A stretch of DNA of 64,000 nt from Arthrobacter stackebrandtii. Its GTDB lineage: Bacteria; Actinomycetota; Actinomycetes; Actinomycetales; Micrococcaceae. Both the position numbers and the translations under genes were made by a program. The notes below the pieces were generated by a model. That model saw only the letters and a list, made by a program, of their open reading frames with translations. It did not search any database and was not told the origin of the DNA. The stretch spans positions 2,542,001 through 2,606,000 of the forward strand of contig NZ_JAGIOI010000001.1 in assembly GCF_017876675.1 (NCBI RefSeq). Reading direction: 5' to 3'. Shown piece after piece: positions 254 to 45,620 of the stretch. The number at the start of each line of letters is the position of its first letter. Within the stretch, counting starts at the first letter, position 1.

Positions 254-636
254 GGTGCTGTAAACCTTTCAACGGGATCCGCCCTGCGTCATTGCAGGGC
301 AGTTCATGCTTGGCTGGCCGGCCCGAAGTCCTTGGTGATGATCGGTCCTTGCGGTTTTGGCCATACTGCATCAGGTTAGCTACTGCCGGGTAGTTTGTGA
401 CCCCCACGGCAGGGGCGGGGCGAAAGACTGTCCAAAAGGACAATTTTTGCATGGTTCCAAGTCCCGGGACCATGGGCATGTGGGCGCAGCCGGGGGAGGG
501 TGGCGCATGCATGGTGCGAGAGCGTCGGGTGGGAAACGACCATTGGTGCGAGCGCGTCGGGTGGGAAACGGTCATTGGTGCGATGGCGTCGGGAAAAAGC
601 GGCGCTTATGTGATGCGGCGTTGCATGGCGGAGGGG
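254..636. other. 383-bp intergenic region with a tandem repeat array
   Basis: This lies between the secreted peptidase (transcribed leftwards from 253) and the 3' end of mshA. The left part should hold the peptidase promoter, but I see no convincing -35/-10 pair. The right part (510-625) holds three tandem ~31-bp units and a GTGATGCGGCGTTG unit, described separately. Open frames crossing it are not supported as genes. Confidence 0.6.
510..625 (-). repeat. Tandem ~31-32 bp intergenic units (locus A)
   Basis: Three imperfect contiguous copies begin at 510, 541 and 573. Each starts CATTGGTGCGA (first copy CATGGTGCGA) and continues with GCGTCGGGTGGGAAAC or a decayed form. A fourth, variant unit with GTGATGCGGCGTTG lies at 610-623. 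Read on the minus strand the units follow the stop of mshA directly, so they would be in its 3' untranslated RNA. The same family occurs at four other places in this window. Confidence 0.8.
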
Positions 637-1923
637 TCAGCAGCCCGGGGGAGCCACGTACTGGTACGTGACGGACAGGTCGTAGCTGGCCATGGTCTGC
701 TGCGCCGTGTTTTCCCAGCCGAAGGACTGGGCGAAGACGGAGGCGGCGCGGCCCATGTCGAGCCGGGTTTGCGGGAAGTCGTGCAGCGAGGCGATGGCCT
801 CGGCCCACAGCTTGGCGGATCGGCCCTGCACCAGCAGCCCGGTCCGGCCGTCGCTCACCGCGCGGGGCAGTCCGCCAACATCAGTGGCCACCACGGGCGT
901 GCCGCAGGCCTGCGCCTCAAGCGCCACGAGGCCGAACGATTCGCTGGAGGACGGCACGGCAACAAGGTCCGCGCTGCGGTACCAGTCCGCCAGGGCATCT
1001 GGCCCCACGGGTGGGTACACCGCGGCAATCCCGCCAAGCCCGGCCTCGGCAATCATTTGCGGAAGGTCGTACTTTTCGCTGCCGCTGCTGGCACCGAGGA
1101 AGCTTATTCGCAGTGGGATGTCCGGGCGCGCGGCCTGCAGCAGTGCAGCGGCCTTGACCAGCACGTGCGGGCCTTTCAGTCGCTGGATGCGGCCGGCAAA
1201 CACCACATGGAAATCGGCGGGGTCGATGCCCAGCCGCAGGCGCGAGCGGTCCCGGAATGCGGGCTGGAACACTCGCAGGTCCACGCCGGGGGAGACCACG
1301 TCGATGCGCTGTTCACAGCCGTCGTAGTGGCCCTCGATCTCGGCGGCCTCGGCCGTGGTGTTGGCGATCAGGCGGGTGGCTCCGGCGACGATGTGCTGTT
1401 CGCCGTCCTCCCTGATGCCCGGTTCCGCATGCTGGCCGGGGCGCAGCAGGTGGTTTTTGACGCGGGCCATGGTGTGCATGGTGTGCACCAGGGGCAGGTC
1501 CAGCCGCTTCGCCACCAACAGCCCGGCCATGCCGGAAACCCAGTAGTGGGAATGGATGACGTTGACCGGAAGCGCGGCCCCGCCAGGCTGCCCGGCCGGG
1601 GACGGCGCGGAGCCGAGCCCGGAAATGTGGGCGGCAACGGCGTCGGCCATTTCATTCACCAGCTCCGGCAGCTCCTCCTTGGAAACCTTGCCGAAGGGCC
1701 CGGCCGTGATGTGGTGGACATTGGCGTGCGGGGCGAGGGGGACGGTGTCGGGCTGGGTGGCGGAGGTGCGGCGGGTGTAGATGTCCACGACCATGCCGGC
1801 CGCGGCCAGTTCCAGTGCCAGGGCGCGCACGTAGACGTTCATGCCGCCGGCATCGCCGCCGCCCGGCTGCTCCAGCGGGGATGTGTGCAGCGAGAGCATG
1901 GCCACGCGCCGTACCTGATGCAT
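637..1923 (-). CDS. mshA: D-inositol-3-phosphate glycosyltransferase (MshA)
   Basis: GT4-family enzyme that transfers GlcNAc from UDP-GlcNAc to 1L-inositol-3-phosphate, the first step of mycothiol synthesis in the cytoplasm. The 428-aa length fits the family. The N-terminal signature SLHTSPLEQPGGGDAGGMN (about residues 11-29) is characteristic of MshA. The C-terminal nucleotide-sugar domain carries the retaining-GT4 motif ESFGLVALEAQACGTPVVA near residues 328-346. The ATG at 1923 has GGGAGGA a few bases upstream. It is transcribed alone, divergently from alr. Confidence 0.95.
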   Translation of the reverse strand: MHQVRRVAMLSLHTSPLEQPGGGDAGGMNVYVRALALELAAAGMVVDIYTRRTSATQPDTVPLAPHANVHHITAGPFGKVSKEELPELVNEMADAVAAHISGLGSAPSPAGQPGGAALPVNVIHSHYWVSGMAGLLVAKRLDLPLVHTMHTMARVKNHLLRPGQHAEPGIREDGEQHIVAGATRLIANTTAEAAEIEGHYDGCEQRIDVVSPGVDLRVFQPAFRDRSRLRLGIDPADFHVVFAGRIQRLKGPHVLVKAAALLQAARPDIPLRISFLGASSGSEKYDLPQMIAEAGLGGIAAVYPPVGPDALADWYRSADLVAVPSSSESFGLVALEAQACGTPVVATDVGGLPRAVSDGRTGLLVQGRSAKLWAEAIASLHDFPQTRLDMGRAASVFAQSFGWENTAQQTMASYDLSVTYQYVAPPGC

Positions 1924-2119
1924 CCGCGTCCTCCCAGCCTGCCGCGGCGCCCGCCCGCCGGGCCGCCATTTGATGCTTCAATCTTGCCACTGCCGCGCCC
2001 TGCAACCTAGCCCGACTGCGGTGCCTGGACTTGGGCGGGCAGGGCTGCGGTCCGCCGGGGACCGGGGCGGGCCGCGGTGCGTGGGCGGGGAGGGGCGGCA
2101 AACGGGCTAAAATGGGCGG

Positions 2120-3346
2120 GTGAGCCCATCAGTCGTGCCGGTTCAAGCGCCTGCCCCAGGCCTTGAACGGCAAGCCATCATTGACCTGTCCGCCATCGCC
2201 AACAACATCCGCCACCTGCGTGAGCTGGCGGCCCCCGCCCAATTCATGGCGGTGGTTAAGGCCGACGCCTACGGGCACGGCGCGGTCCCCGTGGCGCGGA
2301 CCGCCGTGGCGGCGGGTGCGCAGTGGCTGGGCACGGCCCACATCACAGAGGCGCTTGAACTGCGCGCGGCCGGCCTTGACGTGCCGGTGATGTGCTGGCT
2401 GCACACCCCGCAGAGTGATTTCACGGCCGCCGTGGCCAACAACATCGACCTCGGCTGCTCGGGGTGGGAGCTGGAGCGCATTGTTGCCGCCGCCCGCTCG
2501 CTGGAGCGCCCGGCCCGGGTCCACCTGAAGATTGACACGGGGCTGGGCCGCAACGGCTGCCCGGGCGCGGACTGGCCCGCGCTGGTCGAGGCCGCCATGG
2601 TCCACCAGCGGGCCGGCCTGATCAGGGTGGTGGGCGTGTTCAGCCACCTCGCCGTGGCCGACGAACCCGAACGGCCGGAAACCGACGATCAGCTGGAGCG
2701 GTTCCGCGATGCCGTGTCCGTGGCGGAGGCTGCCGGCGCCGAGCTCGAGGTTCGCCACATCGCCAACACCCCCGCCACCCTGTCCCGTCCCGACACGCAC
2801 TTTGACATGGTGCGCGTGGGCCTGGGCGTGTACGGGCTCTCGCCTTTTGCCGACCGTACCTCCGCCCAACTGGGGCTGGTGCCGGCCATGACGCTGCAGA
2901 CCCGGATCGCGCTGTGCAAGGACGTTCCTGCCGGGCAGGGTGTCTCCTACGGGCTGAACTACGTCACTGACGAGCCCACCACCCTGGGCCTGGTGCCGCT
3001 GGGCTATGCAGACGGCATTCCGCGTGTGGCCACCGGCGGCCCCGTGCGCGTCAACGGCATCAGCTACCCCGTGGTGGGGCGCATTGCCATGGACCAGATG
3101 GTGATCGACCTCGGGCCGCACTTCCGCCTGGCCTCGGCCGCTGCCGCTGACGCTGCCGGTGGCGTGGAGGCCACCGCCGCGGACTCCGCCGGAATCCTCG
3201 GAGCCACTGCCGAATTGTTTGGCAACGGCCACGACGGCGGGCCCCTCGTTGAACAGTGGGCCGCCGCCGCAGGGACCATCAACTACGAGGTCGTGACCCG
3301 CATCAGCCAGCGGGTGCCGCGCAGCTACACCGGAGGTGCCGAATGA
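2120..3346 (+). CDS. alr: Alanine racemase
   Basis: PLP enzyme that interconverts L- and D-alanine for peptidoglycan. It has 408 aa and starts with GTG. VVKADAYGHG places the PLP-binding Lys at residue 47, and GVSYGLNY gives the catalytic Tyr at about residue 277. The C-terminal beta domain carries GRIAMDQMVIDL. A short Ala/Asp-rich insertion (about residues 336-362) is longer than in many homologues. The stop overlaps tsaE by 4 bp (ATGA), so it is translationally coupled to the t6A genes, as in mycobacteria. Confidence 0.97.
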   Translation: MSPSVVPVQAPAPGLERQAIIDLSAIANNIRHLRELAAPAQFMAVVKADAYGHGAVPVARTAVAAGAQWLGTAHITEALELRAAGLDVPVMCWLHTPQSDFTAAVANNIDLGCSGWELERIVAAARSLERPARVHLKIDTGLGRNGCPGADWPALVEAAMVHQRAGLIRVVGVFSHLAVADEPERPETDDQLERFRDAVSVAEAAGAELEVRHIANTPATLSRPDTHFDMVRVGLGVYGLSPFADRTSAQLGLVPAMTLQTRIALCKDVPAGQGVSYGLNYVTDEPTTLGLVPLGYADGIPRVATGGPVRVNGISYPVVGRIAMDQMVIDLGPHFRLASAAAADAAGGVEATAADSAGILGATAELFGNGHDGGPLVEQWAAAAGTINYEVVTRISQRVPRSYTGGAE

Positions 3347-4038
3347 GCCAGTGGGAATTTGCCACAGGCACGGCCGCTGCCACCCAGCAGCTGGCTGAAA
3401 ACCTGGCACCGATGCTGCGGGCCGGGGACCTCATCATCCTCAGCGGCGGGCTGGGTGCCGGCAAGACCACCTTCACGCAGGGCCTGGGCCGCAGCCTGGG
3501 CGTGCGCGAGGGCATCATCTCGCCCACGTTCGTGCTGGTCCGCATCCACCCCAACCTTGTGGACGGGCACAACCCCGGCGGCCCCGACCTCGTCCACGTC
3601 GACGCCTACCGCCTGGCCGGGCCGGGCGAGATCGACGACATCGACCTGGAAAACACCATGGATTCGGCCGTCACGGTCGTGGAGTGGGGGGTGGACCGGG
3701 TGGAGCACCTTGCGGACAGCCGCCTGGAAATCGAGCTGGTCCGCGCCGTGGGCGGGGAGGATTCCCCGGGGGAAACGTCCGACGGCGGCACTGCGGAAGT
3801 GCCCGCCGGCACCTTGGCGGGGGCGGAAGCCGGGAACGGCACCCCGGGTGGGCCCGGCGCCGTCGGCCATGCCGGCTCCATGGACTTCGCCGACACCTTT
3901 GACGATGCCGATACGGACGACGACGAACCCCGCGTCCTGCGCCTTCGTGCCGTGGGGCCGCGCTGGGACGGTGTGGACTTCTCCCGCCTCGACCAGCCCG
4001 CAGCCCCGCGGAACAGCCAAGAAAACACAACGGAATAG
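3343..4038 (+). CDS. tsaE: tRNA t6A37 threonylcarbamoyladenosine biosynthesis ATPase TsaE
   Basis: ATPase partner of TsaB/TsaD in making N6-threonylcarbamoyl-adenosine at position 37 of ANN-decoding tRNAs. The ATG at 3343 overlaps the alr stop. The Walker A motif GGLGAGKTT is at residues 35-43. SPTFVLV and HVDAYRL, typical of TsaE, follow. The protein has 231 aa, while bacterial TsaE is usually about 150-170. The extra length is an acidic Gly/Ala/Asp-rich insert around residues 140-205, before a final LRAVGPRWDGVDF segment. That insert looks disordered. Confidence 0.95.
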   Translation: MSQWEFATGTAAATQQLAENLAPMLRAGDLIILSGGLGAGKTTFTQGLGRSLGVREGIISPTFVLVRIHPNLVDGHNPGGPDLVHVDAYRLAGPGEIDDIDLENTMDSAVTVVEWGVDRVEHLADSRLEIELVRAVGGEDSPGETSDGGTAEVPAGTLAGAEAGNGTPGGPGAVGHAGSMDFADTFDDADTDDDEPRVLRLRAVGPRWDGVDFSRLDQPAAPRNSQENTTE

Positions 4039-4047
4039 ACTAAAAAC

Positions 4048-4785
4048 GTGCGAATCCTGACCATTGACACCTCGGCCGTCGCCAGCGCCGCCTTGCTCCA
4101 CTTTGACCCGGCGGACCATTTGCGCACGGTTGAGGTTGTGGCGAACTTTGCCACGGAGGACACCCGCAGCCACGCCGAGGTGCTGGCGCCGGGCGTGCAG
4201 TCGCTCTTCACGGAACCTGTCAACGAGGGCCCGGCGCTGGACGCGATCATCGTCGGCACCGGCCCGGGACCGTTCACGGGGCTGCGGGCCGGCATCGCCA
4301 TGGCGCGGACGCTCAGTTTCACATGGAACATTCCGCTGTACGGGCTGATGAGCCTGGACGCCCTGGCCCAGCAGGTCTTCGACGCGCCCCGAAAAAACGA
4401 TGCCGGCCGAGCAGTGGGGCCCCTGGCCATGAACGACTTCATCATCGCCACCGACGCCCGCCGCAAGGAAGTGTACTGGGCCAGGTACAGTGCCGGTGCG
4501 CAGCTTCTGGACGGCCCGCACGTTGGCCCGGCCGACGGCGTTCCCGCCTTGCAGGTGTTCGGCGCCGGGGCCGGCCTGTACCGGGACGTGCTGGAAGCCA
4601 ACGGCGCCGGCGTGTACCCGCTGTTCGCCGACGCCCAGCCCACCGCCGTGGAACTGGGCCGTGCCGCGGCGCGGAAAATCATCGCCGCCGGCTCCCTGGA
4701 GGGAGCCGGGCTGCTGGATTCCACCCCGCTGTACCTGCGCGAATCCGACGCCAAGGTCCCCGGCCCCCGGAAGCGTGCGCTGTGA
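4048..4785 (+). CDS. tsaB: tRNA t6A biosynthesis protein TsaB
   Basis: ASKHA-fold partner that heterodimerises with TsaD. It has 245 aa and starts with GTG 9 bp after the tsaE stop. The N-terminus MRILTIDTSAVASAAL and the central GTGPGPFTGLRAGIAMARTL are TsaB hallmarks, as is NDFIIATDARRKEVYWARY. The stop overlaps the rimI start by 1 bp (TGATG). It belongs to the alr-tsaE-tsaB-rimI-tsaD operon. Confidence 0.96.
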   Translation: MRILTIDTSAVASAALLHFDPADHLRTVEVVANFATEDTRSHAEVLAPGVQSLFTEPVNEGPALDAIIVGTGPGPFTGLRAGIAMARTLSFTWNIPLYGLMSLDALAQQVFDAPRKNDAGRAVGPLAMNDFIIATDARRKEVYWARYSAGAQLLDGPHVGPADGVPALQVFGAGAGLYRDVLEANGAGVYPLFADAQPTAVELGRAAARKIIAAGSLEGAGLLDSTPLYLRESDAKVPGPRKRAL

Positions 4786-5327
4786 TGCCGCCCGCTGAAA
4801 CACCCCCCGGCCAGGCCGCACGCCCCGCCTCACTGCGCGACATGGCCCCGGCCGACATCGACTTCATCACGGCCCTGGACCGGACCCTGTTTGGCGTGGA
4901 TTCCTGGCCGCGGGAGATGTTTGCGGGGGAGCTCAGCGCGCCCGAAACCCGGCGGTACATCATCGCGGAGCTGCCCTCCGCCGTCGGGCCCCGGGGCCAA
5001 ATGCAGACAGTGGGCTATGCGGGCCTGATGTGCGTGCCGCCCATCGGCGACATCCAGACCATCGGCGTGCTGCCCGAATTCGAGGGCCGCGGCATTGCCC
5101 GGGCCATGCTCGAGGAGCTCATCGCGGAGGCGGCGCGGCGCGGGGCGGCGGACATCATGCTCGAGGTCAGCTCCACGAACCCGCGCGCGCAAGACCTGTA
5201 CCTGCGCTACGGCTTTGAACACATCCACACCCGGCGCCGGTACTACCGGGACGGATCTGACGGGCTGATCATGCGCCTGAGGCTGCCCGCCGGAACTGCC
5301 GACGAACACACGAAGGACCCCTCATGA
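4785..5327 (+). CDS. rimI: Ribosomal-protein-alanine N-acetyltransferase (RimI)
   Basis: GNAT acetyltransferase. RimI acetylates the N-terminal Ala of ribosomal protein S18; actinobacterial homologues may have wider substrates. It has 180 aa. The acetyl-CoA loop is in [20 protein letters not shown], and the C-terminal [26 protein letters not shown] is typical. The ATG at 4785 gives a 1-bp overlap with tsaB. An in-frame upstream extension exists but lies inside tsaB and is rejected. The stop overlaps tsaD by 4 bp. Confidence 0.92.
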
Positions 5328-6409: not shown

Positions 6410-6432
6410 CGGTTGATCCGACCAAACCCCAG

Positions 6433-7772: not shown

Positions 7773-7885
7773 GGCAGTGAGAGTCCTTCGATGGCATTGG
7801 GCTCCGTGCCCGGGTGCACGGAAGCATCTGATCCACGCTAGCGCCTCCACATGAACCCGCGGTTAACTCGCGCGGCAAACAATCC

Positions 7886-8020
7886 CTGTCGCAGCAATGG
7901 CGGCATTTTCGGGGTCCCTGTCGCAGCGGGTGCGACAGGGACCGCGAAAAACCGGCCATTGCTGCGACAGCGTCCGTGGGAAACCGGCCATTGCTGCGAC
8001 AGCGTCCGTGGGGAGAGGTC
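7886..8020 (-). repeat. Intergenic repeat units with an 80-bp imperfect palindrome (locus B)
   Basis: On the + strand, two tandem units beginning CCATTGCTGCGACAGCGTCC lie at about 7956 and 7988. A reversed copy lies at 7886-7925. The reversed copy and the first forward copy form an imperfect palindrome (7886-7925 against 7931-7970, 36 of 40 positions paired by eye) with a 5-base loop. Its inner 13 bp (7913-7925/7931-7943) are perfect. The forward units follow the 3' end of the histidine kinase gene when read on the minus strand. Confidence 0.85.
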
Positions 8021-8035: not shown

Positions 8036-9052
8036 TCAGGCGGCGGGCAGGGTCAGCGTCATGGTGGTGCCGGACGGGCCCGTCTCGGTCACCTCGACGG
8101 TTCCGCCGGCGGCCGTTGCGATTTCGCGGACCAGAGCCAGGCCCAGTCCGTAGCTGCGCCTACCTCCCGCCGGGGCTTCGCTGCTGCGGGCAAAGCGGTC
8201 AAACACCCGGGAGGGCTCGATCCCGGCAATGCCGCTGCCGGTGTCTGAAACGGTGACGGACACCCAGCTCCCTGACTGTGCCACGACCACCGTGATGGAC
8301 CCGCCGGCCGGGGTGTGGTTCAGAGCGTTGTCCACCAGCCCCATGACGGCCCGGCGCAAACTGTTGGCCGCGATGCGAACCCGGGGTCCGTCGTCGTCCC
8401 CGGAGGAGGCACTCCGGGCGGCGTCTCCGGGAGCCAGGGATATGCCGCGTGAGGCGGCCAGGTCCTGCAGCCCGGCCGCGACGTCCGCAATCACGGGGGC
8501 CACCGCGAGCGGTTCGGACGTGGTCCCGGCATCGCCCATGGCGGCCAGCAGGAGTTCCTGGACGGTGTCCGTCAGCGCGGCCGTGTCCTGGCGGACCTGG
8601 GCAAGGATGCGGGCGGCGTCGCTGCCGGGCTCCACCTTGAGTTCGGCGAGCTGGACGCGGGCGTCGAGGATGGCCAGCGGGGTGCGCAGCTCGTGGCTGG
8701 CATCCTGCACGAAGCGGCGCTGCATGTCGAGGGCGCGGCCGACAGGGCGGATGGCGCTGCGGGCACTGAGCCAGCCGATGGCCCCCGCGGCAACGATCCC
8801 GGCGAACCCGGCCAGCGCCATGGCCTTGAGCATGTCGTTGGACTCCACGTAAACCCGGTCGGCCGCGTCCGCGGCGGCGGTGTCCGGGTGGTGCGAGAGG
8901 TAGAGCATGTACAGCGCGGCTGCAATGATCACCACCACCACCATGAGCGCGGCGGCCACGGCAATGCGCAGACCCACGGTGACGGCGGCCCGGCGCAGCT
9001 GCGGGGAGTCGGCGGAGGGGGCGTGCGGAGCCGCCGGGCGGCGGGCGCTCAT
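8036..9052 (-). CDS. Two-component sensor histidine kinase
   Basis: Membrane sensor kinase of 338 aa. Two transmembrane helices (about residues 25-52 and 78-96) flank a very short extracytoplasmic loop of about 25 residues. The dimerisation helix carries the phospho-acceptor His in QDASHELRTPLAIL. The ATPase domain has NALNHTPAGG (N box), DTGSGIAG (G1) and GLGLALVREIA (G2). Its start overlaps the response-regulator stop by 4 bp. The short loop suggests it senses a membrane or envelope signal, or a partner protein, not a large ligand; that is inference. Confidence 0.93.
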   Translation of the reverse strand: MSARRPAAPHAPSADSPQLRRAAVTVGLRIAVAAALMVVVVIIAAALYMLYLSHHPDTAAADAADRVYVESNDMLKAMALAGFAGIVAAGAIGWLSARSAIRPVGRALDMQRRFVQDASHELRTPLAILDARVQLAELKVEPGSDAARILAQVRQDTAALTDTVQELLLAAMGDAGTTSEPLAVAPVIADVAAGLQDLAASRGISLAPGDAARSASSGDDDGPRVRIAANSLRRAVMGLVDNALNHTPAGGSITVVVAQSGSWVSVTVSDTGSGIAGIEPSRVFDRFARSSEAPAGGRRSYGLGLALVREIATAAGGTVEVTETGPSGTTMTLTLPAA

Positions 9053-11376: not shown

Positions 11377-11421
11377 TTTTCCCCAACGCGGCATCAACGG
11401 GTGATGCGGCGTTGGGGAAAA
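11377..11421 (-). terminator. Long hairpin downstream of lacZ (locus E repeat)
   Basis: The arms 11377-11396 and 11402-11421 pair at 19 of 20 positions around a 5-base loop. Read on the minus strand the hairpin lies about 25 bp past the lacZ stop and ends in TTTT-rich flanks on both sides. A further GTGATGCGGGGTTG unit sits at 11431-11444, matching the one at 610-623 after mshA. It probably terminates the beta-galactosidase operon and insulates the PAP2 operon. Confidence 0.65.
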
Positions 11422-11446
11422 CGGCGATTAGGTGATGCGGGGTTGC

Positions 11447-20667: not shown

Positions 20668-20930
20668 GACGCTGTCGCACCAATGGCGTGTTTTCCCGTG
20701 ACGCTGTCGCAGCAATGACGGAAATCCCGGCAACGCCCTCGCACCATTGGCGGGTCTGTTGGCGCCGATTTCGCGCCCCGGCGCGGCACGGGTGCGGCCG
20801 GATGCCGCCGGTGCGGCATGGACGGACAAAAAGCGGCCGTTGGTGCGATCGCGTCCAGTGACTTTCAGCCATTGGTGCGATCGGGTCGGGTGAAAACCTG
20901 CCATTGCTGCGACAGGGTCGATGGGGCGGG
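20668..20930. repeat. Intergenic repeat units facing each other (locus C)
   Basis: At 20668-20750, three units of the form GACGCTGTCGCACCAATGGC follow the aroE-like stop on the + strand, at about 20668, 20700 and 20732. At 20836-20930, three units in the opposite orientation (CCATTGGTGCGATCG types) follow the stop of the minus-strand methyltransferase. Between them is a GC-rich spacer. Each convergent gene thus carries its own set, oriented with its transcription. Confidence 0.85.
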
Positions 20931-20934
20931 AGGG

Positions 20935-22149
20935 CTACCAGCCGTGGGGTTCCACCACGATCGCGACGCGGTCCTCGCCGATCCGGGTCAGCACCAGCGT
21001 GGCCTTGTTGGGGCCCTTGCCGGAGCCGGTCAGCAGTTGGCGGCGCAGTTCCTCGGGCGTGACGGAAATGCCGCGCTTCTTGATGTCGAGCACGCCGATC
21101 CGTGAGGCCTTGACCCATGCCTTGAGCGCCTTGACGTTGTACGGCTTGACCTCCAGGACCTTGTAGCAGCGGGCCAGGGGAGTGTGCACCGGATCGTCCG
21201 AGGACAGGTAGGCGATGTGCTCGTCCAGCAGGTGCGCTCCCATGCTGCGGGCCAGGTCAGCCACCAGGCCGGCGCGGATGACGGCGCCGTCGGGTTCGTA
21301 AAGGTAGCCCGCCACCGGGCCGATTTCGGCGTCCTGCGCGGCGGGGTCGTACGCCACCGCGCTGGTGATCTCATTCATGCCGGACGGGCCCACCACCAGG
21401 GCCGAGCGGCGGATGCCGGGCCGGGCCAGCTGGTTGAAGTACAGCCCCGCCTCAACGACATCCCCGTTGACGGAAATCCATTGCGCCTCGGCGGTGGCAG
21501 GGACGGCCTCGTGGGGGATGCCCGGGCCCATCTTCACGCCGACGGCAAGCCCCCGGTCCGCCAGCTCCTCCACGAAGGACAGCGGCGGGGAAAACGCCTC
21601 CGGGTCAAAGAGGCGGGTGGTGCCGGAGGTGCTGGTGGTGCGCCGGGCCGGGTCCAGCCAGACGCCGCCGATGCCGTCCAGGTCGGCATCCTCGGCGCGG
21701 CCGCACACCACCTTGGCATGCGGGAACGGCATCAGGTTGATGGTGGTGCAGGCTGCGGTGACCTCGTCCATTTCGACCGCGGTGACGTTGATGTCCAGGC
21801 TGGCCATCGCCAGCGAGTCGGCACCCAGCCCGCAGCCGAGGTCGGCAACGGAGGTGATGCCCGCCGTCGTAAATCTTTGTGCGTGAAGGGCTGCGATGCT
21901 CAGGCGCGTGGCCTGCTCCAGGCCCGCCTGGGTGAACAGCATCTGGTGGGCAAACTCGCCAAACTTGGCCTCGGCCTTGGCGCGCAGCCGGGACTGGGTC
22001 AGTGCCGCGGCAACGAGCTCGGGGGAGTGCCCGGCCTTGCGCAGCGACTCGTTGACCTTGAGGGAATCGGCCTCGCGGTAGGGGCCCAGCGAGGACAGCA
22101 GTTCCCAGCCGGCAGGGGTCAGGAGCGGGGAAATTGCGTCGGAGGCCAT
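20935..22149 (-). CDS. Class I SAM methyltransferase with THUMP-like domain
   Basis: Methyltransferase-fold protein of 404 aa. The SAM motif VADLGCGLGADSLAMA is at about residues 99-114, and VWLDPARR lies in the position of the catalytic motif. The C-terminal part (about 320-404), with YKVLEVKPYNVKALKAWVKAS and the IGVLDIKKRGIS segment, matches the THUMP-like domain. That points to an RNA substrate. Single gene. Confidence 0.88.
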   Translation of the reverse strand: MASDAISPLLTPAGWELLSSLGPYREADSLKVNESLRKAGHSPELVAAALTQSRLRAKAEAKFGEFAHQMLFTQAGLEQATRLSIAALHAQRFTTAGITSVADLGCGLGADSLAMASLDINVTAVEMDEVTAACTTINLMPFPHAKVVCGRAEDADLDGIGGVWLDPARRTTSTSGTTRLFDPEAFSPPLSFVEELADRGLAVGVKMGPGIPHEAVPATAEAQWISVNGDVVEAGLYFNQLARPGIRRSALVVGPSGMNEITSAVAYDPAAQDAEIGPVAGYLYEPDGAVIRAGLVADLARSMGAHLLDEHIAYLSSDDPVHTPLARCYKVLEVKPYNVKALKAWVKASRIGVLDIKKRGISVTPEELRRQLLTGSGKGPNKATLVLTRIGEDRVAIVVEPHGW

Positions 22150-25465: not shown

Positions 25466-26217
25466 TCACGCTGACCGACGTCCGGAAAAGCTACAACAGC
25501 GAGGTGTCCATCGGCCCGGTGGACCTGGTGATCCCCGCCGGGGGAGTCACGGCCCTGGTGGGGCCCAACGGTGCCGGGAAGTCCACGCTGCTGACCATGG
25601 TCGGCCGGCTGCTGGGGCTCGACGCCGGAACCATTGAGATTGCAGGCTGGGATGTGGCGTCCACGAAGTCGGCGGACCTGGCGAAGGTTGTGTCCGTGCT
25701 GCGCCAGGAGAACCACTTCGTAGCCCGCCTGACGGTGCGCCAGCTGGTGGGTTTTGGCCGGTTCCCGCACTCCAAGGGCCGGCTGACAGTGGCCGACGAG
25801 GAGGCCATCAGCCAGGCGGTCGACTTCCTGAACCTTGGGGAACTGGAAAACCGCTACCTGGACCAGCTCTCCGGCGGCCAGCGCCAGCGCGCCTACGTGG
25901 CCATGGTGCTGGCGCAAGACACCGACTATGTCCTGCTGGATGAGCCGCTGAACAACCTGGACATGAAGCACTCCGCCCAGATGATGGCGCTGCTGCAGAG
26001 GGCTGCGTCGGAGCTGGGCCGGACCATTGTGATCGTGCTGCACGACATCAACTTTGCCGCCCACTACGCGGACCACATCTGCGCGGTCAAGGACGGCGAG
26101 GTCGTGGAGTTCGGCACCCCGGAGGAGATCATGCGCGACGACGTCCTCAGCCGCGTCTTCGACACCCCCGTCCAGGTGATCGACGGCCCGCGCGGCCCGC
26201 TGGCGGTGTACTACTGA
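25462..26217 (+). CDS. Siderophore ABC transporter ATP-binding protein (FepC type)
   Basis: ATPase of 251 aa powering the importer. Walker A GPNGAGKST is at residues 34-42. The ABC signature LSGGQRQRAYVAMVLAQ is followed by Walker B YVLLDEPLNNLD and the switch His in VLHDINFAAHYADH. The GTG start overlaps the permease stop by 4 bp. A longer open frame upstream runs through the permease and is not used. Confidence 0.95.
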   Translation: MITLTDVRKSYNSEVSIGPVDLVIPAGGVTALVGPNGAGKSTLLTMVGRLLGLDAGTIEIAGWDVASTKSADLAKVVSVLRQENHFVARLTVRQLVGFGRFPHSKGRLTVADEEAISQAVDFLNLGELENRYLDQLSGGQRQRAYVAMVLAQDTDYVLLDEPLNNLDMKHSAQMMALLQRAASELGRTIVIVLHDINFAAHYADHICAVKDGEVVEFGTPEEIMRDDVLSRVFDTPVQVIDGPRGPLAVYY

Positions 26218-26235
26218 CGCGCCCCGGCCAGTGCC

Positions 26236-27045
26236 TCAGCTGTCCTTGCGGATCCAGCGGAAGGTGAGGCGGCACAGCACCAGGCCAACCACGAGCCACA
26301 CCGCGAGCACCAGCGCCACCAGTCCCAGGTTCCAGGCGTCCCCGGGCTCGGAGGCCTCGAACGAGGCCGGCAGGAACACCGAACGCATGCCCTGTGCCAT
26401 CCATTTCAGCGGAAAAATGGCGGCAAAGTTCTGCAGCCAGGCGGGAAGCTGGGAAAACGGCAGGTAGACGCCGGAAATGAATTGCAGCAGCAGGACAATC
26501 GGGATGACCACGGCCGTGGCGCTCTTCCCTGTCCGCGGCAGTGCCGAGAGCGCAATGCCCAGAACACAGCTCGTAATGACACCGAACAGGAACACCCAGG
26601 CGAACGTCAGCCATTTGGATGCCTCGGTGGGCAGGTCGACGTCGAAGGCAAAACGGGCCACCAGCAACAACAGGATCACCTGCAGTACCGAGCTGGCCAG
26701 CACCATGCCGATCTTGCCCATGAAATAGGAGAACACCGGCAGGGGAGTGCCGCCCAGCCGCTTCAGTGTGCCGTCGCCCTTCTCCGCGGCAATGTCCACC
26801 CCCAGGTTCTGTACGCCGCTGAGCAGCATGCCCGCAGCCACCATGCCGGGCAGGTAGAACGCCGCATACGTGATGCCGCCGCCGGGCATGTCCGCACCGA
26901 TCTTGGGGCTGGTGCTGAACGCCACGGCAAACACCGAGAGCATCAGGATCGGGAATAGAAAGGTGAAGAACACCGAATCGCCCTGGCGGAAGTACAGCCG
27001 CAGTTCGTAGCCAATGCGCGAGGTGCCCAGCTGCAGTGTTCTCAC
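26236..27045 (-). CDS. ABC-2 type exporter permease
   Basis: Membrane permease of 269 aa with about six helices, typical of DrrB/YhhJ-like ABC-2 proteins. LRLYFRQGDSVFFTFLFPILML opens the first helix. It forms a two-gene operon with the ATPase upstream (4-bp overlap). The substrate is unknown. It is convergent with the siderophore operon. Confidence 0.9.
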   Translation of the reverse strand: MRTLQLGTSRIGYELRLYFRQGDSVFFTFLFPILMLSVFAVAFSTSPKIGADMPGGGITYAAFYLPGMVAAGMLLSGVQNLGVDIAAEKGDGTLKRLGGTPLPVFSYFMGKIGMVLASSVLQVILLLLVARFAFDVDLPTEASKWLTFAWVFLFGVITSCVLGIALSALPRTGKSATAVVIPIVLLLQFISGVYLPFSQLPAWLQNFAAIFPLKWMAQGMRSVFLPASFEASEPGDAWNLGLVALVLAVWLVVGLVLCRLTFRWIRKDS

Positions 27046-33449: not shown

Positions 33450-33515
33450 ATGACACCGCTCCCGCTTTCTGACACCGATATCCCGGTGTCAGAAAGCGGG
33501 AGCGGTGTCATTTTT
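33450..33515 (+). terminator. 28-bp perfect hairpin after groEL
   Basis: The arms 33450-33477 and 33484-33511 are exact reverse complements around a 6-base loop (ATATCC), followed by TTTTT. Each arm carries TGACACCG twice, so the hairpin is itself built from a repeat. It should terminate groES-groEL transcription strongly. The length and internal repetition go well beyond an ordinary terminator. Confidence 0.9.
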
Positions 33516-39405: not shown

Positions 39406-40022
39406 CAGGCCAGGGCTGCGCTGAACAGGTCAAAAGCCTCGGCCGCCGGGACGGCCACGGCCTGTGCAGCATCACCGTTGCCGGTTTTCAAGGTCCAGGC
39501 ATCATTCGGTTCGCGCCTCAGGTGTGCCGTGCGGGGGGACTCCGTTGCAGCATGGCGGGTGACCATGGCTGCGGCCGGCAGTCCGTCCGTTGCATCCTGA
39601 AGATAGGCGCGGGCGAGCAGGACGCCCAGGTGCGCAACGCCGTCGGAAGTGTCCACGGGGCGCACCTGGTGGACGCCCAACCTGTCCAGCGACAGCAGCA
39701 GCGAGCCATGTTCCGAGGCCGCCACGAACATGACATGGTCAACCTTGGGCGTCACAAACGCCACCTCCAGCCAGGCCGTGGACGTGGTCAGGACCGCAGC
39801 CACGAGGGCTCCACGGCCCACGGGCTCGATGTCGTCGCCGCTGGCCTGGGCCATGCCTCGGGCCAGCAGGGTGGTGATGCCTGCCCGCTCCAGCACGTCC
39901 TGGTGGGGAACAGCGGCCAGTCGGAACAGCTCGCGGGTGAACGTGGTGGATTCACCGGGATTCATGGCAAGCAGGGCCAGAAGTTCATGGTCCGTCAGCA
40001 GGAGCTCTGATTCGTCCGTCAT
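39405..40022 (-). CDS. 205-aa protein of an EspG-like/type VII-associated family (paralogue B)
   Basis: Second member of the pair. MTDESELLLTDHELLALLAM, LERAGITTLLARGMAQ, TAWLEVAFVTPKVDHVMFVA, LGVHQVRPVD and the C-terminal VPAAEAFDLFSAALA mirror paralogue A block by block. It starts at ATG 40022, 49 bp after the WXG100 gene. It is a candidate chaperone for the WXG100 protein, by context only. Confidence 0.6.
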   Translation of the reverse strand: MTDESELLLTDHELLALLAMNPGESTTFTRELFRLAAVPHQDVLERAGITTLLARGMAQASGDDIEPVGRGALVAAVLTTSTAWLEVAFVTPKVDHVMFVAASEHGSLLLSLDRLGVHQVRPVDTSDGVAHLGVLLARAYLQDATDGLPAAAMVTRHAATESPRTAHLRREPNDAWTLKTGNGDAAQAVAVPAAEAFDLFSAALA

Positions 40023-40071
40023 TGGTCCTTCATTCCTTGGTGTCTGAATGGGGTTTTGGGCTTGCTCAACT

Positions 40072-40962: not shown

Positions 40963-41082
40963 GTGAGCCTGCCTTAGGTGTCGCTGGTGGGTGCGTCGCG
41001 CACAACGATTTCCGTCCCACACTAGCGCCGCGCGCTGCCGTGCGCGATGGGGAGTCCTCACCATCGCGGCTAGAATCAACGC

Positions 41083-42177
41083 ATGCTTCCCGCCTATGAC
41101 CACTCCGCCGAATATTCGCACTGGGATGCCGGCCTGTGGACCCGCGTCCTGTCCGCCTCGGGCGTGCGCAGCCCGTTCACCGGCGAACCGTTTACGGAGG
41201 CCATGCTGGCTGGGCTGGCCGGCGGCATCGGCTTCATGATCTTCACGTTTGAATACAAGGACATCACCACGGCGTCGGCGGTGACCCGCTTCCACCCCGG
41301 CCCCTACACCGAGAACCTGCTCCGCCGCTCCGGCGCCGCCGTCAACATCCAGCAGACGGGCAGCGCCAAGCTGGCCCAGTCGCGACTGGACGCCGCACTC
41401 GAAACCGGGGTGCCCGCCGTCGTGCGTGTTGTGCGCGGTGAACTCCCCTGGATCGCGAAGGACCCGCTGGCCGACATGGACTCCATGGACGTTGCGGTGG
41501 TGGCCAGGGAGGGTGCCGGCTACCTGATGGACGACGGCGGCGGGCGCCTTGAGCGGATCACCGCGGCCGCGCTGGCGCAGGCGCGCGGCTCGCGCAAGGC
41601 GGACAAGCACTGGCAGGGGCATGTCGTGGTCCGCGGCGGGGCGGCGCAGGAGGGCGAGTCGCTGACCGCGGAAGTGGTGCGCCATGCCATGGCTGAGACC
41701 GCGGCGGAGCTCCTGTCCCAGCAGGCGCCGCCCGGGATTCCGCCGGGATACGCCAAGAACTTCGGCGTGCTGGGCATGCAGACCTGGGCGCAGCGGCTTG
41801 TGGATGCGTCCACCAAGCACGGCTGGATGCGGATCTTTGGCGACCCGGAACGCTCCGCCACCGGCATGGGCATGCTGCACGGGCTGCTGGCGGGGAAGCG
41901 CTACAGCGGGCCCGGCGCGCTGCGGCCGTTGTATGCGCAATTCCTCGACGAGGTGGCGCTGGCAGGGGAGGGGGTGTCCGGCGTCGAACGGGCAGGGCTG
42001 GCCGAAACCGCCGCACAATACCGCGCGTTGGGGGAGCACTGGGATGCCCTGACGGCGCTGGTCGGGGCCCCGGGTGAGCCGGATTTTGTGGCGATGGCGT
42101 CCCGGGTGGAGGCGATCGCGGTGCTGGAGGAGGCCGCGGCGAAGGAGCTGGCGGCTGTGGCGGGCAGCACGGACTAG
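41083..42177 (+). CDS. BtrH N-terminal / DUF4872-type protein
   Basis: Protein of 364 aa. The N-terminal half (HWDAGLWTRVLSASGVRSPFTG, then GGIGFMIFTFEYKD and LAQSRLDAALETGVPAVVRV) resembles the BtrH N-terminal papain-like domain. The C-terminal half (KNFGVLGMQTWAQRLVDAST, then GRRPLYAQF-like helices) resembles DUF4872. BtrH acts in butirosin assembly as an acyl-transfer enzyme; this homologue's role is unknown. Single gene, divergent from the WXG100 gene. Confidence 0.8.
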   Translation: MLPAYDHSAEYSHWDAGLWTRVLSASGVRSPFTGEPFTEAMLAGLAGGIGFMIFTFEYKDITTASAVTRFHPGPYTENLLRRSGAAVNIQQTGSAKLAQSRLDAALETGVPAVVRVVRGELPWIAKDPLADMDSMDVAVVAREGAGYLMDDGGGRLERITAAALAQARGSRKADKHWQGHVVVRGGAAQEGESLTAEVVRHAMAETAAELLSQQAPPGIPPGYAKNFGVLGMQTWAQRLVDASTKHGWMRIFGDPERSATGMGMLHGLLAGKRYSGPGALRPLYAQFLDEVALAGEGVSGVERAGLAETAAQYRALGEHWDALTALVGAPGEPDFVAMASRVEAIAVLEEAAAKELAAVAGSTD

Positions 42178-42222
42178 CCCGGTTTTCATGGCCCGGGCGC
42201 TCCCTGCGATAGGCTAGGGGGC

Positions 42223-43347
42223 GTGACTTATGAGATTGAGATTGGCCGTGGAAAGCGTGGACGCCGCGCATACTCGTTGGATGAGATTGCGATTGTGCCC
42301 TCCAGGCGCACCCGCGACCCCCAGGATGTGTCGGTGAAATGGCAGATCGATGCCTACCAGTTCGACATCCCCGTCCTCGGTGCGCCGATGGACTCGGTCA
42401 TGTCACCGGAGACGGCGATTGCCCTCGGCAAGCTCGGCGGCCTGGGCGTCCTGGACCTGGAAGGCCTGTGGACCCGCTATGAGGACCCGCAGCCGCTGCT
42501 CGACGAGATTGCGCTGCTGCAGGCCTCCGTGGTTGACGCCGAGACCACCGTGCGCCTCCAGCAGATCTACAGCGAGCCCATCAAGGCAGAACTGATCACC
42601 GCCCGCCTGGCCGAGATCCGTGCCGCCGGCGTGACCGTTGCCGGCTCCCTCACGCCGCAGCGCACGCAGGAGTTCTACAAGACCGTTGTGGCGGCGGGCG
42701 TGGACATCTTCGTCATCCGCGGCACCACGGTTTCCGCCGAGCACGTGTCCAAGTCCACCGAACCGCTGAACCTCAAGCAGTTCATCTACGAACTTGACGT
42801 CCCCGTCATCGTGGGCGGCGCGGCCGGCTACACCCCGGCCCTGCACCTCATGCGCACCGGCGCGGCGGGCGTCCTGGTCGGCTTTGGCGGCGGCGCGTCC
42901 ACCACCACCAGCCGTGCACTGGGCATCCGCTCACCCATGGCCAGCGCCATCTCCGACGTTGCCGCGGCCCGCCGCGACTACATGGACGAGTCCGGCGGCC
43001 GCTACGTTCACGTGATCGCCGACGGCGGCATGGGCTCCAGCGGCGACATCGTCAAGGCCATCGCCATGGGCGCCGACGCCGTCATGCTTGGCGCCGCACT
43101 GTCCCGGGCTGCCGAGGCACCCGGCCAGGGCTGGCACTGGGGTGCCGAGGCGCACCACCAGGAACTGCCGCGCGGCCACCGCGTCCACATGGGCACTGTG
43201 GGCACGCTGGCAGAGGTCCTGCACGGCCCGGCACACCAGGCCGACGGCGCCTCCAACCTGATCGGTGCCCTGCGCCGCTCCATGGCTACCACCGGCTACT
43301 CGGACCTGAAGGAATTCCAGCGCGTCGAGGTCATTGTCGCCCCGTAG
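42223..43347 (+). CDS. GuaB3-family IMP dehydrogenase-related protein
   Basis: TIM-barrel IMPDH paralogue of 374 aa without CBS domains, GTG start. GAPMDSVMSPETAIAL and DGGMGSSGDIVKAIAMGADAVMLG match the fold. At the place of the catalytic loop (GSICTTR in guaB) it has GFGGGASTTTSRALG, with no Cys. The same loss is known in the mycobacterial homologue, so it is unlikely to be an ordinary IMP dehydrogenase. Syntenic with guaB and guaA. Confidence 0.9.
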   Translation: MTYEIEIGRGKRGRRAYSLDEIAIVPSRRTRDPQDVSVKWQIDAYQFDIPVLGAPMDSVMSPETAIALGKLGGLGVLDLEGLWTRYEDPQPLLDEIALLQASVVDAETTVRLQQIYSEPIKAELITARLAEIRAAGVTVAGSLTPQRTQEFYKTVVAAGVDIFVIRGTTVSAEHVSKSTEPLNLKQFIYELDVPVIVGGAAGYTPALHLMRTGAAGVLVGFGGGASTTTSRALGIRSPMASAISDVAAARRDYMDESGGRYVHVIADGGMGSSGDIVKAIAMGADAVMLGAALSRAAEAPGQGWHWGAEAHHQELPRGHRVHMGTVGTLAEVLHGPAHQADGASNLIGALRRSMATTGYSDLKEFQRVEVIVAP

Positions 43348-43365
43348 CCTGTGCTTCCGCCGCAA

Positions 43366-43394
43366 GGGCGCCCGTCCGTTACGGACGGGCGCCC
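43366..43394 (+). terminator. guaB3 terminator hairpin
   Basis: GGGCGCCCGTCCGT (43366-43379) and its exact complement (43381-43394) meet at a tight centre (GTTAC). The hairpin is 18 bp past the stop of the guaB3-type gene. Confidence 0.65.
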
Positions 43395-43471
43395 CGGCAT
43401 TTAGCCCGGCTAGACTGGACGCGGGACGACCCGGTGCGGGGCCCTCCCTTGGACGCATGCGAAAGGTACCG

Positions 43472-43963
43472 ATGACGCAGGGCTCGCTGGAACGCTATGA
43501 AACCGAACTGACCAACCCGGGCCTCGTGATCCTGGAAATGGTGGCCGACTCCAAGGAGGATGCCGCCGCACAGCTCGCCGCAAAACTGTACGGGCAGGGC
43601 CGCATCTCGGACCTGGAAGGCTTCCTTGCCGACGTCAACGCCCGCGAGCACCAGATGGCCACCGGCCTGCCCGGCGGGATCGGCCTGCCGCACGCCCGCA
43701 GTGCGTTCGTCAACGAAATCTCCATCGCGGTGGGCATCACCAAGTTCGACCACAGCCTGGATTTTGGCGCGGTGGACGGTCCGGCCAACGTGATTTTGCT
43801 CATCGCGACGCCCGCCAGCTCCTTCTCGGCGCACCTGGAGGTCCTGGCCACGCTGGCCCGCTCGCTGTTCAAGGAAAACTTCCGCGAGTCGCTGCGCCGC
43901 GCCCACGACGCCGAGGTTATTGCCGAACTCATCAACTCGACCCTGGTGTTCTTCGACCACTGA
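43472..43963 (+). CDS. PTS fructose-family EIIA protein
   Basis: Stand-alone EIIA domain of 163 aa. The phosphorylated His is H74 in GIGLPHARS. NEISIAVGITKFDHSLDFGAVDGPANVILLIATPAS follows the family pattern. The ATG at 43472 has GAAAGG 7 bp upstream; other in-frame starts lie upstream. No EIIB/EIIC gene is adjacent, so it may act in regulation or with a distant fructose or mannitol permease. Confidence 0.88.
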   Translation: MTQGSLERYETELTNPGLVILEMVADSKEDAAAQLAAKLYGQGRISDLEGFLADVNAREHQMATGLPGGIGLPHARSAFVNEISIAVGITKFDHSLDFGAVDGPANVILLIATPASSFSAHLEVLATLARSLFKENFRESLRRAHDAEVIAELINSTLVFFDH

Positions 43964-44078
43964 AACCATGCACGACGGCGGCACTCGCCTGCCGCCTGCG
44001 GCCCGGCCGGGGCAGCGGGCAGGACGGGCGCCGTGGGTGCATTCGTTGTTCTACATGGTTACGAAGTACCGTTGAAGT

Positions 44079-44981
44079 GTGTTAAAAACTGCCGTCAAGC
44101 CCAAATGGATAGCAGCGCTGCTGTTTGCGCTGGCTGTCGCCGCCGTCCTAGTCCTCCTCAGCCAATGGCAGTTTTCCCGTTCGCTGGAGAAGGATGTTGC
44201 CCCGCCGTCCGTGACGGAGAAGGTGCAGCCCCTGCTTGACACCATGGAACCCGGGCAGACCATGACGGGCAACATCGAGGGCCAGTTGGTCACCGCCAAG
44301 GGCCATTTTGACCCGTCCAGGCAGGTGCTCGTCTCCTCCCGCGTCCAGGACGAGAGGATTGGCTACTGGGTAGTCACTGCCTTTGTTGTGGATGGCGCAC
44401 CCGTTCTGGAAGGCGTGGCAGCAACCGAGGAGGTCGTGATTCCCGTCGCCCGCGGCTGGATTCCCACGCCGGACAACGTCCCGGCTGCCCCAACCGGAAC
44501 CCTGGAAGTCGAGGGCCGCCTGCTCAACTCGGAGGGCCCTGTAGTTTCACAAAAGCTGCCCGAGGGACAGGTTTCCGCACTGGCGTCCGCGGAGCTGACC
44601 AACGTCTGGGAAGTGACCACCTACGCGGCCTTCATCGTTTCCCACAGTGAAACGCTGGACGGCCAGAACGTTGGTGCGGCAGCCTCCAACGGGGCGCTGG
44701 TCCCAATCACCGTCACCGCCACGGACCAGAACGACAAGATCAACTGGCTCAACATCTTCTACGCCGCCGAATGGGTCATCTTCGCCGGATTCGCTCTCTT
44801 CCTCTGGTGGCGCCTCGTCGCCGACGACTACCGCCGCGAACAGGACGAATTGTTCGACATCGACCATGATGATGACGACAAGGGCGGGGACCTCGACGGG
44901 CCCGGCGGCGGCCAGCCCGCCACAGTGCCGAACCGGCACACAGACACCACGAACCACATTGAGGAGGGCCGGCAACAGTGA
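44079..44981 (+). CDS. SURF1-family cytochrome oxidase biogenesis protein
   Basis: Membrane protein of 300 aa that helps assemble haem-copper cytochrome oxidase. GTG start. Two helices, near residues 8-28 and about 225-245, enclose a large extracytoplasmic domain with the SURF1 pattern RQVLVSSRVQDERIGYWVVTAFVVDGAPVLEGVAATEE. An acidic tail follows. The stop overlaps the DUF3817 gene by 4 bp. Confidence 0.9.
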   Translation: MLKTAVKPKWIAALLFALAVAAVLVLLSQWQFSRSLEKDVAPPSVTEKVQPLLDTMEPGQTMTGNIEGQLVTAKGHFDPSRQVLVSSRVQDERIGYWVVTAFVVDGAPVLEGVAATEEVVIPVARGWIPTPDNVPAAPTGTLEVEGRLLNSEGPVVSQKLPEGQVSALASAELTNVWEVTTYAAFIVSHSETLDGQNVGAAASNGALVPITVTATDQNDKINWLNIFYAAEWVIFAGFALFLWWRLVADDYRREQDELFDIDHDDDDKGGDLDGPGGGQPATVPNRHTDTTNHIEEGRQQ

Positions 44982-45493
44982 CCGAGCCGAAGAACACCGA
45001 ATCCAGCACCGCGCCGGAAGCACCCGCACAGCCGGGCGCCAAGGCCGCGCCCAAGCGCCGTTTTGGCGGCACCCCCGCACAGATCCTCTCCGCCTTGAAG
45101 TTCTACAAGTACCTGGCCTACGCAACTGGCGTCATGCTGTTGCTGCTGGTGGTTGAACTGATCTTCCGCTACGGCTTTGGCAGCGTCCTGGTGGCCGGCG
45201 GCACCGACACAGTGACGGGGGCCGCCCACGGCTTTGGTCTTGCCCCCATCCACTCCGTGACTGGCGGCGTGAACCTGTCCACCATGGTGCTGATCATCCA
45301 CGGCTGGATGTACGTGGTGTACTTGATCTCCGACTTCCGCCTCTGGACCCTCATGCGCTGGCCCTTCAGCCGGCTTGTCCTGATCGCCCTCGGCGGCGTC
45401 GTCCCCTTCCTGTCTTTCTTCGTTGAAGCCAAGGTGCACAAGGAAGTTCTGGCGGAAGTGGCCGCCAACCCAAAGGCCGGCAAGCGCTACTAA
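44978..45493 (+). CDS. DUF3817 membrane protein
   Basis: Protein of 171 aa with about three helices (near 46-66, 100-122, 128-150). The motif VHGWMYVVYLISDF-like segment (HGWMYVVYLISDFRLWTLMRWPF) is the DUF3817 core. GTG start overlapping the SURF1 gene. An Ala/Pro-rich soluble N-terminus precedes the first helix. Often next to guaA in actinobacteria; function unknown. Confidence 0.85.
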   Translation: MTEPKNTESSTAPEAPAQPGAKAAPKRRFGGTPAQILSALKFYKYLAYATGVMLLLLVVELIFRYGFGSVLVAGGTDTVTGAAHGFGLAPIHSVTGGVNLSTMVLIIHGWMYVVYLISDFRLWTLMRWPFSRLVLIALGGVVPFLSFFVEAKVHKEVLAEVAANPKAGKRY

Positions 45494-45501
45494 AGCCAAC
45501 C

Positions 45502-45620
45502 CCCTCGCACCATTGGCAGCTCTTTTCTGCGATGCCCTCGCAGCAATTGCTGCTTTTCCTGGGGCGTCCTCGGAGCAATGCCTGGTTTTCCCGAAGTGCT
45601 CTCGCACCCACTGCGAGAGC
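45502..45620 (+). repeat. Tandem intergenic repeat units (locus D)
   Basis: Four units start at about 45502, 45534, 45567 and 45598. They share CCCTCGCA(C/G)CAATTGC-type cores with a TTTTC stretch between them; the period is about 32 bp. They follow the DUF3817 stop on the + strand, the same orientation rule as at the other loci. The array ends about 110 bp before guaA. Confidence 0.85.

What the first reader, a model, noticed from the sequence alone, without database searches (positions are those of the whole stretch)
510..45620. Dispersed ~32-bp intergenic unit family that follows gene 3' ends in one orientation
Read in the direction of transcription, the units run GACGCTGTCGCA(C/G)CAATGGC then a GTTTTCCC-type stretch. 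They follow the stops of mshA (510-603), the histidine kinase (7956-8020), the AroE-like gene (20668-20750), the methyltransferase (20836-20930) and DUF3817 (45502-45620). All five follow the same orientation rule, with about 15 units in total. The period is 31-33 bp with no unique spacers, so this is not CRISPR. It may be a 3'-UTR RNA structure, a terminator substitute, or a small mobile repeat. I know of no named family that fits.
Basis: partly seen in the sequence, partly recalled or inferred. Interest (0 to 1): 0.8.

Follow-up and report, generated by a model that had tools for sequence, protein, structure and literature searches.

The report
Phased 32-bp repeats at gene ends
A bacterium related to Arthrobacter and several of its relatives mark the ends of many genes with short arrays of a 32-letter repeat whose sequence differs between species while place, direction and spacing recur, which points to an undescribed gene-end element of unknown function.

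Summary
The repeat is real and genome-wide: 136 strict core sites in 4.43 Mb against 1 for the reversed pattern. Of 115 strict sites in the fetched sequence, 1 lies inside a called gene. Of 63 arrays, 32 lie between convergent genes, 31 between co-directional genes, 0 between divergent genes.

(1) Opposed arrays face each other (33 of 33) and close into inverted repeats. (2) Facing distances step by about 10.7 bp (70 of 81). (3) Relatives carry different 32-bp units; arrays were found in two genera. (4) 31 of 69 foreign arrays lie at gene ends where this genome also has one.

It is not CRISPR, and not a RAYT-type REP: PF01797 is absent from the five array-richest genomes. Whether it ends transcription is open: separate U-tract terminators are not rarer at array ends, but some arrays themselves look terminator-like.

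I favour a polar gene-end barrier read as phased DNA by an unidentified protein (0.36). RNA hairpins and self-spreading repeats are close rivals. Nine paper searches listed nothing on it. There are no expression data.

The parts
495..622 (-). array of three 32-nt units (495-526, 527-558, 559-590) and a diverged fourth (591-622), 3' of the mshA-like gene (stop at 637)
   Evidence: gene; Pfam
7882..7925 (+). opposed unit plus inner 12-nt box; left arm of the inverted repeat; follows no + strand gene
   Evidence: (I4)
7931..8006 (-). inner box (7931-7942) and two units (7943-7974, 7975-8006), 3' of the histidine kinase gene (8036-9052 -)
   Evidence: hairpin of -78.9 kcal/mol over 7882-8006
   Evidence: the same gene end holds an array in A. 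psychrochitiniphilus (L161); boundaries read by eye; not reported at the score limits
20668..20763 (+). three units 3' of the shikimate-dehydrogenase-like gene (stop ends 20663)
   Evidence: the orthologous gene end carries 32-bp units in 8 further genomes of 20 viewed (by eye)
20824..20919 (-). three units 3' of the THUMP-like/methyltransferase gene (20935-22149 -), facing the previous array
45498..45594 (+). three units 3' of the DUF3817 gene (stop ends 45493); first spacing 33, second 32
45593..45625 (.). terminal hairpin closing the DUF3817 array (14-bp stem, 5-nt loop)

Best explanation
The arrays are lineage-specific elements that mark the ends of transcription units. Each is a run of 32-bp units (three DNA turns) on the sense strand just after a stop codon. 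Where two genes converge, both genes' arrays often face each other and end in a shared inverted repeat. Most likely an unidentified DNA-binding protein reads the phased units and makes a polar barrier that keeps RNA polymerase from running into the neighbouring gene or its antisense strand. Unit and protein would evolve together, giving species dialects. Shown: sequence, place, polarity, period, facing rule, stepped distances, shared sites with different units, matched inner stems in part of the cases. Inferred: the protein, the barrier function and the co-evolution.
For: Placement: 32 convergent, 31 tandem and 0 divergent arrays, against 31/127/53 gaps of 60-600 bp (chi-square p 2e-10). In tandem gaps 17 arrays are sense-only, 12 have both orientations and 2 are antisense-only. 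Median distance from stop to first unit is 27.5 bp. Facing: 33 facing and 0 back-to-back in the own genome. DNA phasing: of 81 facing distances in 13 genomes, 70 lie within 1.7 bp of a 10.67-bp grid; of the 30 not explained by whole 32-bp units, 25 do, and 9 of 10 in the own genome alone. At 8 orthologous sites, 7 keep the same phase class. Direct-only arrays show little RNA fold. Shared sites with different units.
Against: No protein was identified and no binding, RNA-seq or Term-seq data were used. Phasing cases are not fully independent, because some loci are orthologous and a 32-bp period itself gives 10.67 steps; grid and tolerance were chosen after seeing the data. With looser detection 3 of 59 opposed pairs are back-to-back and one more. 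Sites differ between species, and 12 of 21 genomes viewed show no 32-bp units at the shikimate-dehydrogenase-like end. The T-run bias, matched inner stems and the arrays that themselves score as terminators also fit an RNA-level role.
Confidence: 0.36

Rival explanations
1. RNA-level 3'-end element. Each sense unit is a weak hairpin followed by a U-run, and the opposed boxes form a strong terminal hairpin. Together they end transcription or protect mRNA 3' ends as a hairpin cluster.
For: The T-run at positions 24-28 is strand-biased: T 123 against A 17 of 192 own units, and 30:1, 28:3, 27:3, 25:8 and 11:0 in five other genomes. Over positions 1-28 units are 1.0-3.3 kcal/mol more stable than shuffles in 8 of 8 groups, and significantly more so on the sense than the antisense strand in 4 of 8. 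Inner stems are perfect in 12 of 29 against 5% for partners exchanged within a genome. At 15 array ends the array itself scores as a U-tract terminator. Hairpin clusters without U-tails have been proposed as terminators (PMC8355165, abstract and section 13 read).
Against: In the best register (i+j=27) pairing shows no within-genome covariation (z 1.4), though z is 5.7 when shuffled across genomes; a worse-paired register (24) gave z 3.7. Over the full 32 nt two of six groups show no excess, and over 6-24 the antisense is the more stable in G211. Direct-only arrays have mean z -0.53. After the inner hairpin A exceeds T in 7 of 11 genomes. Steps of about 10.7 in facing distance are not explained.
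Confidence: 0.26
2. A self-spreading interspersed repeat (BIME-like in look) that inserts or expands at transcription-unit ends because these are tolerated, with no host function.
For: Dispersed copies of the same framework with differing cores within one genome. G192 has an array where the own genes are separated by 18 bp (L162). Other sites differ between species.
Against: 31 of 69 foreign arrays map beside an own array although fetched own arrays occupy about 1% of the genome (my arithmetic). Strict facing and stepped distances. No RAYT/Y1 transposase in the five array-rich genomes. Target-site duplications were not tested.
Confidence: 0.27
3. A DNA-uptake-type signal with species dialects that has been recruited to gene ends, as in Neisseriaceae.
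For: Dialects with a short shared core and inverted pairs at gene ends resemble DUS (PMC3630211, passages read).
Against: DUS occur in thousands of copies and commonly inside genes (same passages). Here 190 sites at up to one mismatch, against 8 for the reversed control, and 1 of 115 strict sites inside a gene. Tandem phased units are not a DUS feature (recalled).
Confidence: 0.04

Closest known systems
REP / BIME elements with RAYT
   Same: Dispersed intergenic units near gene 3' ends, combined in direct and inverted order (recalled; for REP in general also passages of PMC12306157)
   Different: The unit is 32 bp and not itself a clear palindrome; opposed units face inward; Y1_Tnp (PF01797) absent from G000, G202, G192, G247 and G211
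MIRU, mycobacterial interspersed repetitive units
   Same: Actinobacterial tandem intergenic repeats oriented with genes (recalled, not read)
   Different: MIRU units are longer and lie within operons (recalled); here 32 bp, at gene ends, with facing pairs and species-specific units; no sequence comparison with MIRU was run
DNA uptake sequence dialects of Neisseriaceae
   Same: Species dialects around a short core; inverted pairs associated with terminators (PMC3630211, passages read)
   Different: DUS are about 10-12 nt, thousands of copies, also inside genes; here tandem, 32-bp, far fewer, and almost all intergenic
Hairpin clusters as intrinsic terminators
   Same: Several hairpins close after the stop, U-tail not required (PMC8355165, abstract and one section read)
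   Different: Those are not described there as a repeat family; direct-only arrays here fold little better than shuffles

Membership tests
REP/BIME (RAYT type) | RAYT/Y1 transposase in the genome | tested here: not met
   PF01797 in 2 of 23 genus genomes (G096, G221), none of the five array-rich ones
REP/BIME (RAYT type) | unit is a short palindrome | tested here: not met
   unit hairpin weak, without within-genome covariation in the best register; only opposed pairs give strong stems
REP/BIME (RAYT type) | intergenic, near gene 3' ends | tested here: met
CRISPR array | unique spacers between exact repeats | tested here: not met
   the whole 32 bp repeats, no spacers
Intrinsic terminator (Rho-independent) | GC-rich hairpin immediately followed by a U-tract on the sense strand | tested here: inconclusive
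   15 array ends score as U-tract terminators within the array; a T-run follows a weak hairpin in the unit; after the inner strong hairpin A exceeds T in 7 of 11 genomes
Intrinsic terminator (Rho-independent) | transcription stops there | not testable with these tools
   needs Term-seq/RNA-seq
Known Rfam RNA family | match above gathering score | tested here: not met
   only a tRNA in the window
DNA uptake sequence | very high copy number, including inside genes | tested here: not met
   136 strict sites in 4.43 Mb; 1 of 115 strict sites inside a called gene
MIRU | sequence homology to mycobacterial units | not tested
   no MIRU sequence was compared

The most novel reading that the evidence does not exclude
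A phased, polar gene-end element read by a dedicated protein. The arrays are kept at the same gene ends across species while the repeat sequence is replaced, so each species speaks its own dialect, and facing arrays stay on one face of the helix. This would be a new kind of bacterial transcription-unit boundary.
Probability: 0.21. Interest if true: 0.88.

Novelty: new variant of a known kind. Interest (0 to 1): 0.62.

Why it matters
How high-GC actinobacteria end transcription without many U-tract terminators is, to my knowledge, poorly settled (recalled). A repeat that sits at gene ends, has direction, faces its partner at convergent genes and keeps helical phase would give a direct handle on that question. 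The combination of shared place with different sequence is a good test case for co-evolution between a site and its reader, or for biased repeat turnover. Unit number differs between orthologous arrays, so the repeats might also serve as strain markers.

Tried and rejected
CRISPR: rejected, no spacers. Rfam: no match. RAYT-driven REP: rejected. Unit as an RNA hairpin: energy excess without clear covariation, left as a rival.

Terminator test: I first read the higher rate at tandem array ends (9 of 28 against 18 of 199, p 0.002) as coexistence with separate terminators. One search showed that in 15 of 22 array ends with a terminator every one found overlaps array units, so that reading was withdrawn, the RNA rival raised from 0.22 to 0.26 and the lead reading lowered from 0.38 to 0.36. 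Two further rows, ends near an array but without one of their own (2 of 14 convergent, 0 of 5 tandem), are not in the counts above.

Inner against outer boxes by fixed offsets gave no difference (identity 0.72 and 0.82, p 0.66, n=20), with several cases out of register. The re-done test on detected pairs gave 12 of 29 perfect against 5%. Both are told. A generic 20-nt PWM is poorly specific at score 9 (54 against 32 control), so it was used only with neighbour rules.

Spacing: 32 bp in 64 of 65 own pairs without a spacing condition. The 217 of 227 is conditioned on spacing and is not used as evidence.

One search printed the wrong side of the gene for the 11 minus-strand loci. One search repeated them on the right strand and added four genomes with arrays.

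Dropped rows: units under PWM 12 were left out of array counts; facing distances over 260 were left out. G050 and G342 each gave one tandem-pattern hit; neither looks like an array.

Paper searches (listings seen) named no paper on these repeats in title or abstract start. One search looked for six unit-derived strings and listed four animal papers that share one by chance. RepRanger (PMC12306157, passages) lists Arthrobacter livingstonensis in a table of palindrome counts. PMC4679880 was seen as abstract and outline only.
Full report
THE OBSERVATION. The gene before each array fits the description: GT4 glycosyltransferase, histidine kinase, shikimate-dehydrogenase-like, THUMP-like/methyltransferase, DUF3817. 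In the whole 4,427,938-base genome the pattern TCGCASCAWTGNC occurs 76 + 60 times, against 1 + 0 for the same pattern reversed. At up to one mismatch to TCGCASCAATGGC it is 100 + 90 against 7 + 1. Genes were called with my own codon-usage script, so gene starts are approximate and some genes may be missed.

ANATOMY. A unit is 32 nt: RACGC NNNNN CA(S)C N W T N GG, then about 12 nt with a T-run at positions 24-28, then the next RACGC. Arrays commonly end with a further 12-nt box. Same-strand spacing in the own genome is 32 in 64 of 65 pairs and 33 in one. Arrays there hold 1-3 units per side. When both orientations occur they face each other: 33 facing and 0 back-to-back. With a looser rule over fetched loci of 12 genomes it was 56 to 3. 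In the tightest pairs (25-49 bp) the inner boxes are perfectly complementary over 12 nt in 12 of 29, against 5% when partners are exchanged within a genome; pairs at 58-62 bp are perfect in 1 of 16 and at 91-93 bp in 1 of 11. An earlier fixed-offset comparison showed no such difference. It counted out-of-register cases as mismatches; I give it less weight but it stands as a contrary result.

PLACE AND DIRECTION. I fetched 778 kb of the own genome, window included: the regions of the 100 strict hits listed (up to 2.88 Mb), some beyond, and 20 spread 20-kb stretches. Of 115 strict hits in it, 114 are outside called genes. Of 171 units scored at 8 or more, 90 lie between convergent genes, 79 between co-directional genes (55 sense, 24 antisense), 1 between divergent genes (score 10.2) and 1 inside a gene (score 11.6); the last two are near the noise level. 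At score 12 or more there are 63 arrays: 32 convergent, 31 tandem, 0 divergent, against 31, 127 and 53 gaps of 60-600 bp in the 20 stretches plus window. In convergent gaps the 'follows a stop in sense' rule is met by any unit, so only tandem gaps test it: 17 arrays are sense-only, 12 have both orientations and 2 are antisense-only (p 7e-4 for 17 of 19). The median distance from stop to first unit is 27.5 bp.

RELATIVES. With the strict core, only G000 and G202 have many copies among 295 family genomes. The reason is that the unit differs between species. A looser pattern gives 59, 45, 34, 31 and 31 hits in G000, G202, G192, G247 and G211, and 0 to 14 in the other 18 genus genomes, with reversed controls of 0-2. 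At the shikimate-dehydrogenase-like gene end I viewed 21 genomes by eye. 9 carry 32-bp units there: G000, G202, G247, G211, G192 and G221, G170, G182, G113. The units differ, for example GACGCTTCCTCAGCTTTCGGGG in G247, GACCCTCCCTCACCTTTCGCGG in G211, and GACGCTCCTGCAC-type in G170. G157 and G113 have a 56-57-bp repeat there. The other 11 show none of the 32-bp kind; some have another hairpin, and G052 has other neighbouring sequence. So the looser pattern misses arrays: G182 and G113 gave only 3 and 2 hits. A core-free tandem pattern (two boxes 32 bp apart) was positive in 11 of 158 family genomes, in genera g1 and g10 and one stray, with reversed control 0 in all. Across the order it was positive in 4 of 149 (G000, two g10 genomes, one stray) with the control positive once in each of 2.

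SITE SHARING. I took 69 arrays of seven other genomes and mapped their flanks on the fetched 17.6% of the own genome. 31 fell within 250 bp of an own unit: G202 9 of 12, G192 6 of 16, G247 6 of 17 (one, L176, by a single match of 69% identity), G211 5 of 16, G221 4 of 4, G170 1 of 2, G291 0 of 2. 8 mapped elsewhere, of which two are very short matches and one (L161, first array) proved to face a variant own array at 11385-11444. 30 did not map. The fetched sequence is enriched for own arrays, so 31 to 8 is biased. The fetched own array neighbourhoods make up only about 1% of the genome (my arithmetic), so 31 of 69 is far above chance. G192 also has an array between two convergent genes that in the own window are 18 bp apart at 26217-26236 (L162): arrays come or go.

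PHASING. Facing distances (5' end to 5' end) fall mainly into steps 28, 38, 49, 60, 70, 81, 92, 102, 112, 123, 135. 70 of 81 lie within 1.7 of a 10.67 grid. Of 30 that whole units cannot explain, 25 do, where 32% would be expected by chance (p about 1e-8 if independent, which they are not fully). The own genome alone gives 9 of 10, and 7 of 8 orthologous pairs keep the phase class while most differ by whole units. Grid and tolerance were set after seeing the data. I read this as B-DNA helical phase, since an RNA hairpin does not need it.

RNA-LEVEL EVIDENCE. The T-run is strand-biased (123 T, 17 A of 192 own units). Over positions 1-28 units are more stable than shuffles in 8 of 8 groups, with a sense-strand advantage in 4 of 8. 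Over positions 6-24 G211 shows the opposite, and over 1-32 the own genome and G202 show almost no excess. The best register does not covary within genomes. Direct-only arrays fold little better than shuffles (mean z -0.53, 63 arrays); opposed arrays fold strongly (mean z -8.3, 53) as their inverted repeats require. After the inner hairpin A exceeds T in 7 of 11 genomes. U-tract terminators occur at 22 of 79 array ends and 33 of 280 others, but in 15 of the 22 they overlap the array itself. Separate terminators are thus neither clearly rarer nor commoner at array ends, and a part of the arrays is terminator-like in its own right.

CONCLUSION. A lineage-limited gene-end repeat family with species dialects, which my searches did not find described. 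The facts fit a polar barrier or boundary read as phased DNA by a protein still to be found. RNA hairpin clusters and self-spreading repeats remain close rivals. It resembles REP/BIME elements and DUS dialects in part, and fails a defining test of each. Nothing here is an experiment.

Noticed in passing
L135, L136 and loci L259-L270; pattern CCNCTACTCGCAAGCTCGCAGCGGG, up to 2 mismatches: A second repeat family, tandem with a 56-57-bp period in G157, occurs in 21 of 23 genus genomes (reversed control 0 in all); in G157 and G113 it sits at the same gene end where others carry 32-bp arrays.
   Followed up: partly
own genome, GCACGACGSCG (e.g. near window 7382, 24436, 43967, 53576): Another recurrent motif, 56 copies in 464 kb of which 23 lie outside called genes; seen close to several gene ends.
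   Followed up: partly
L033, L036, L039, L040, L044, L047, L049, L051, L054 (NZ_JADHDY01...): A record titled Sporosarcina beigongshangi REN13 (a Bacillota species) has 65-69% G+C and is handled as same genus as the window; name and sequence do not agree.
   Followed up: partly
window 33450-33511: A perfect 28-bp inverted repeat with a 6-nt loop, unrelated to the 32-bp units (I13).
   Followed up: no
own genome 354012 and 1220786: The only two antisense-only arrays in tandem gaps; a missed gene or true exceptions.
   Followed up: no
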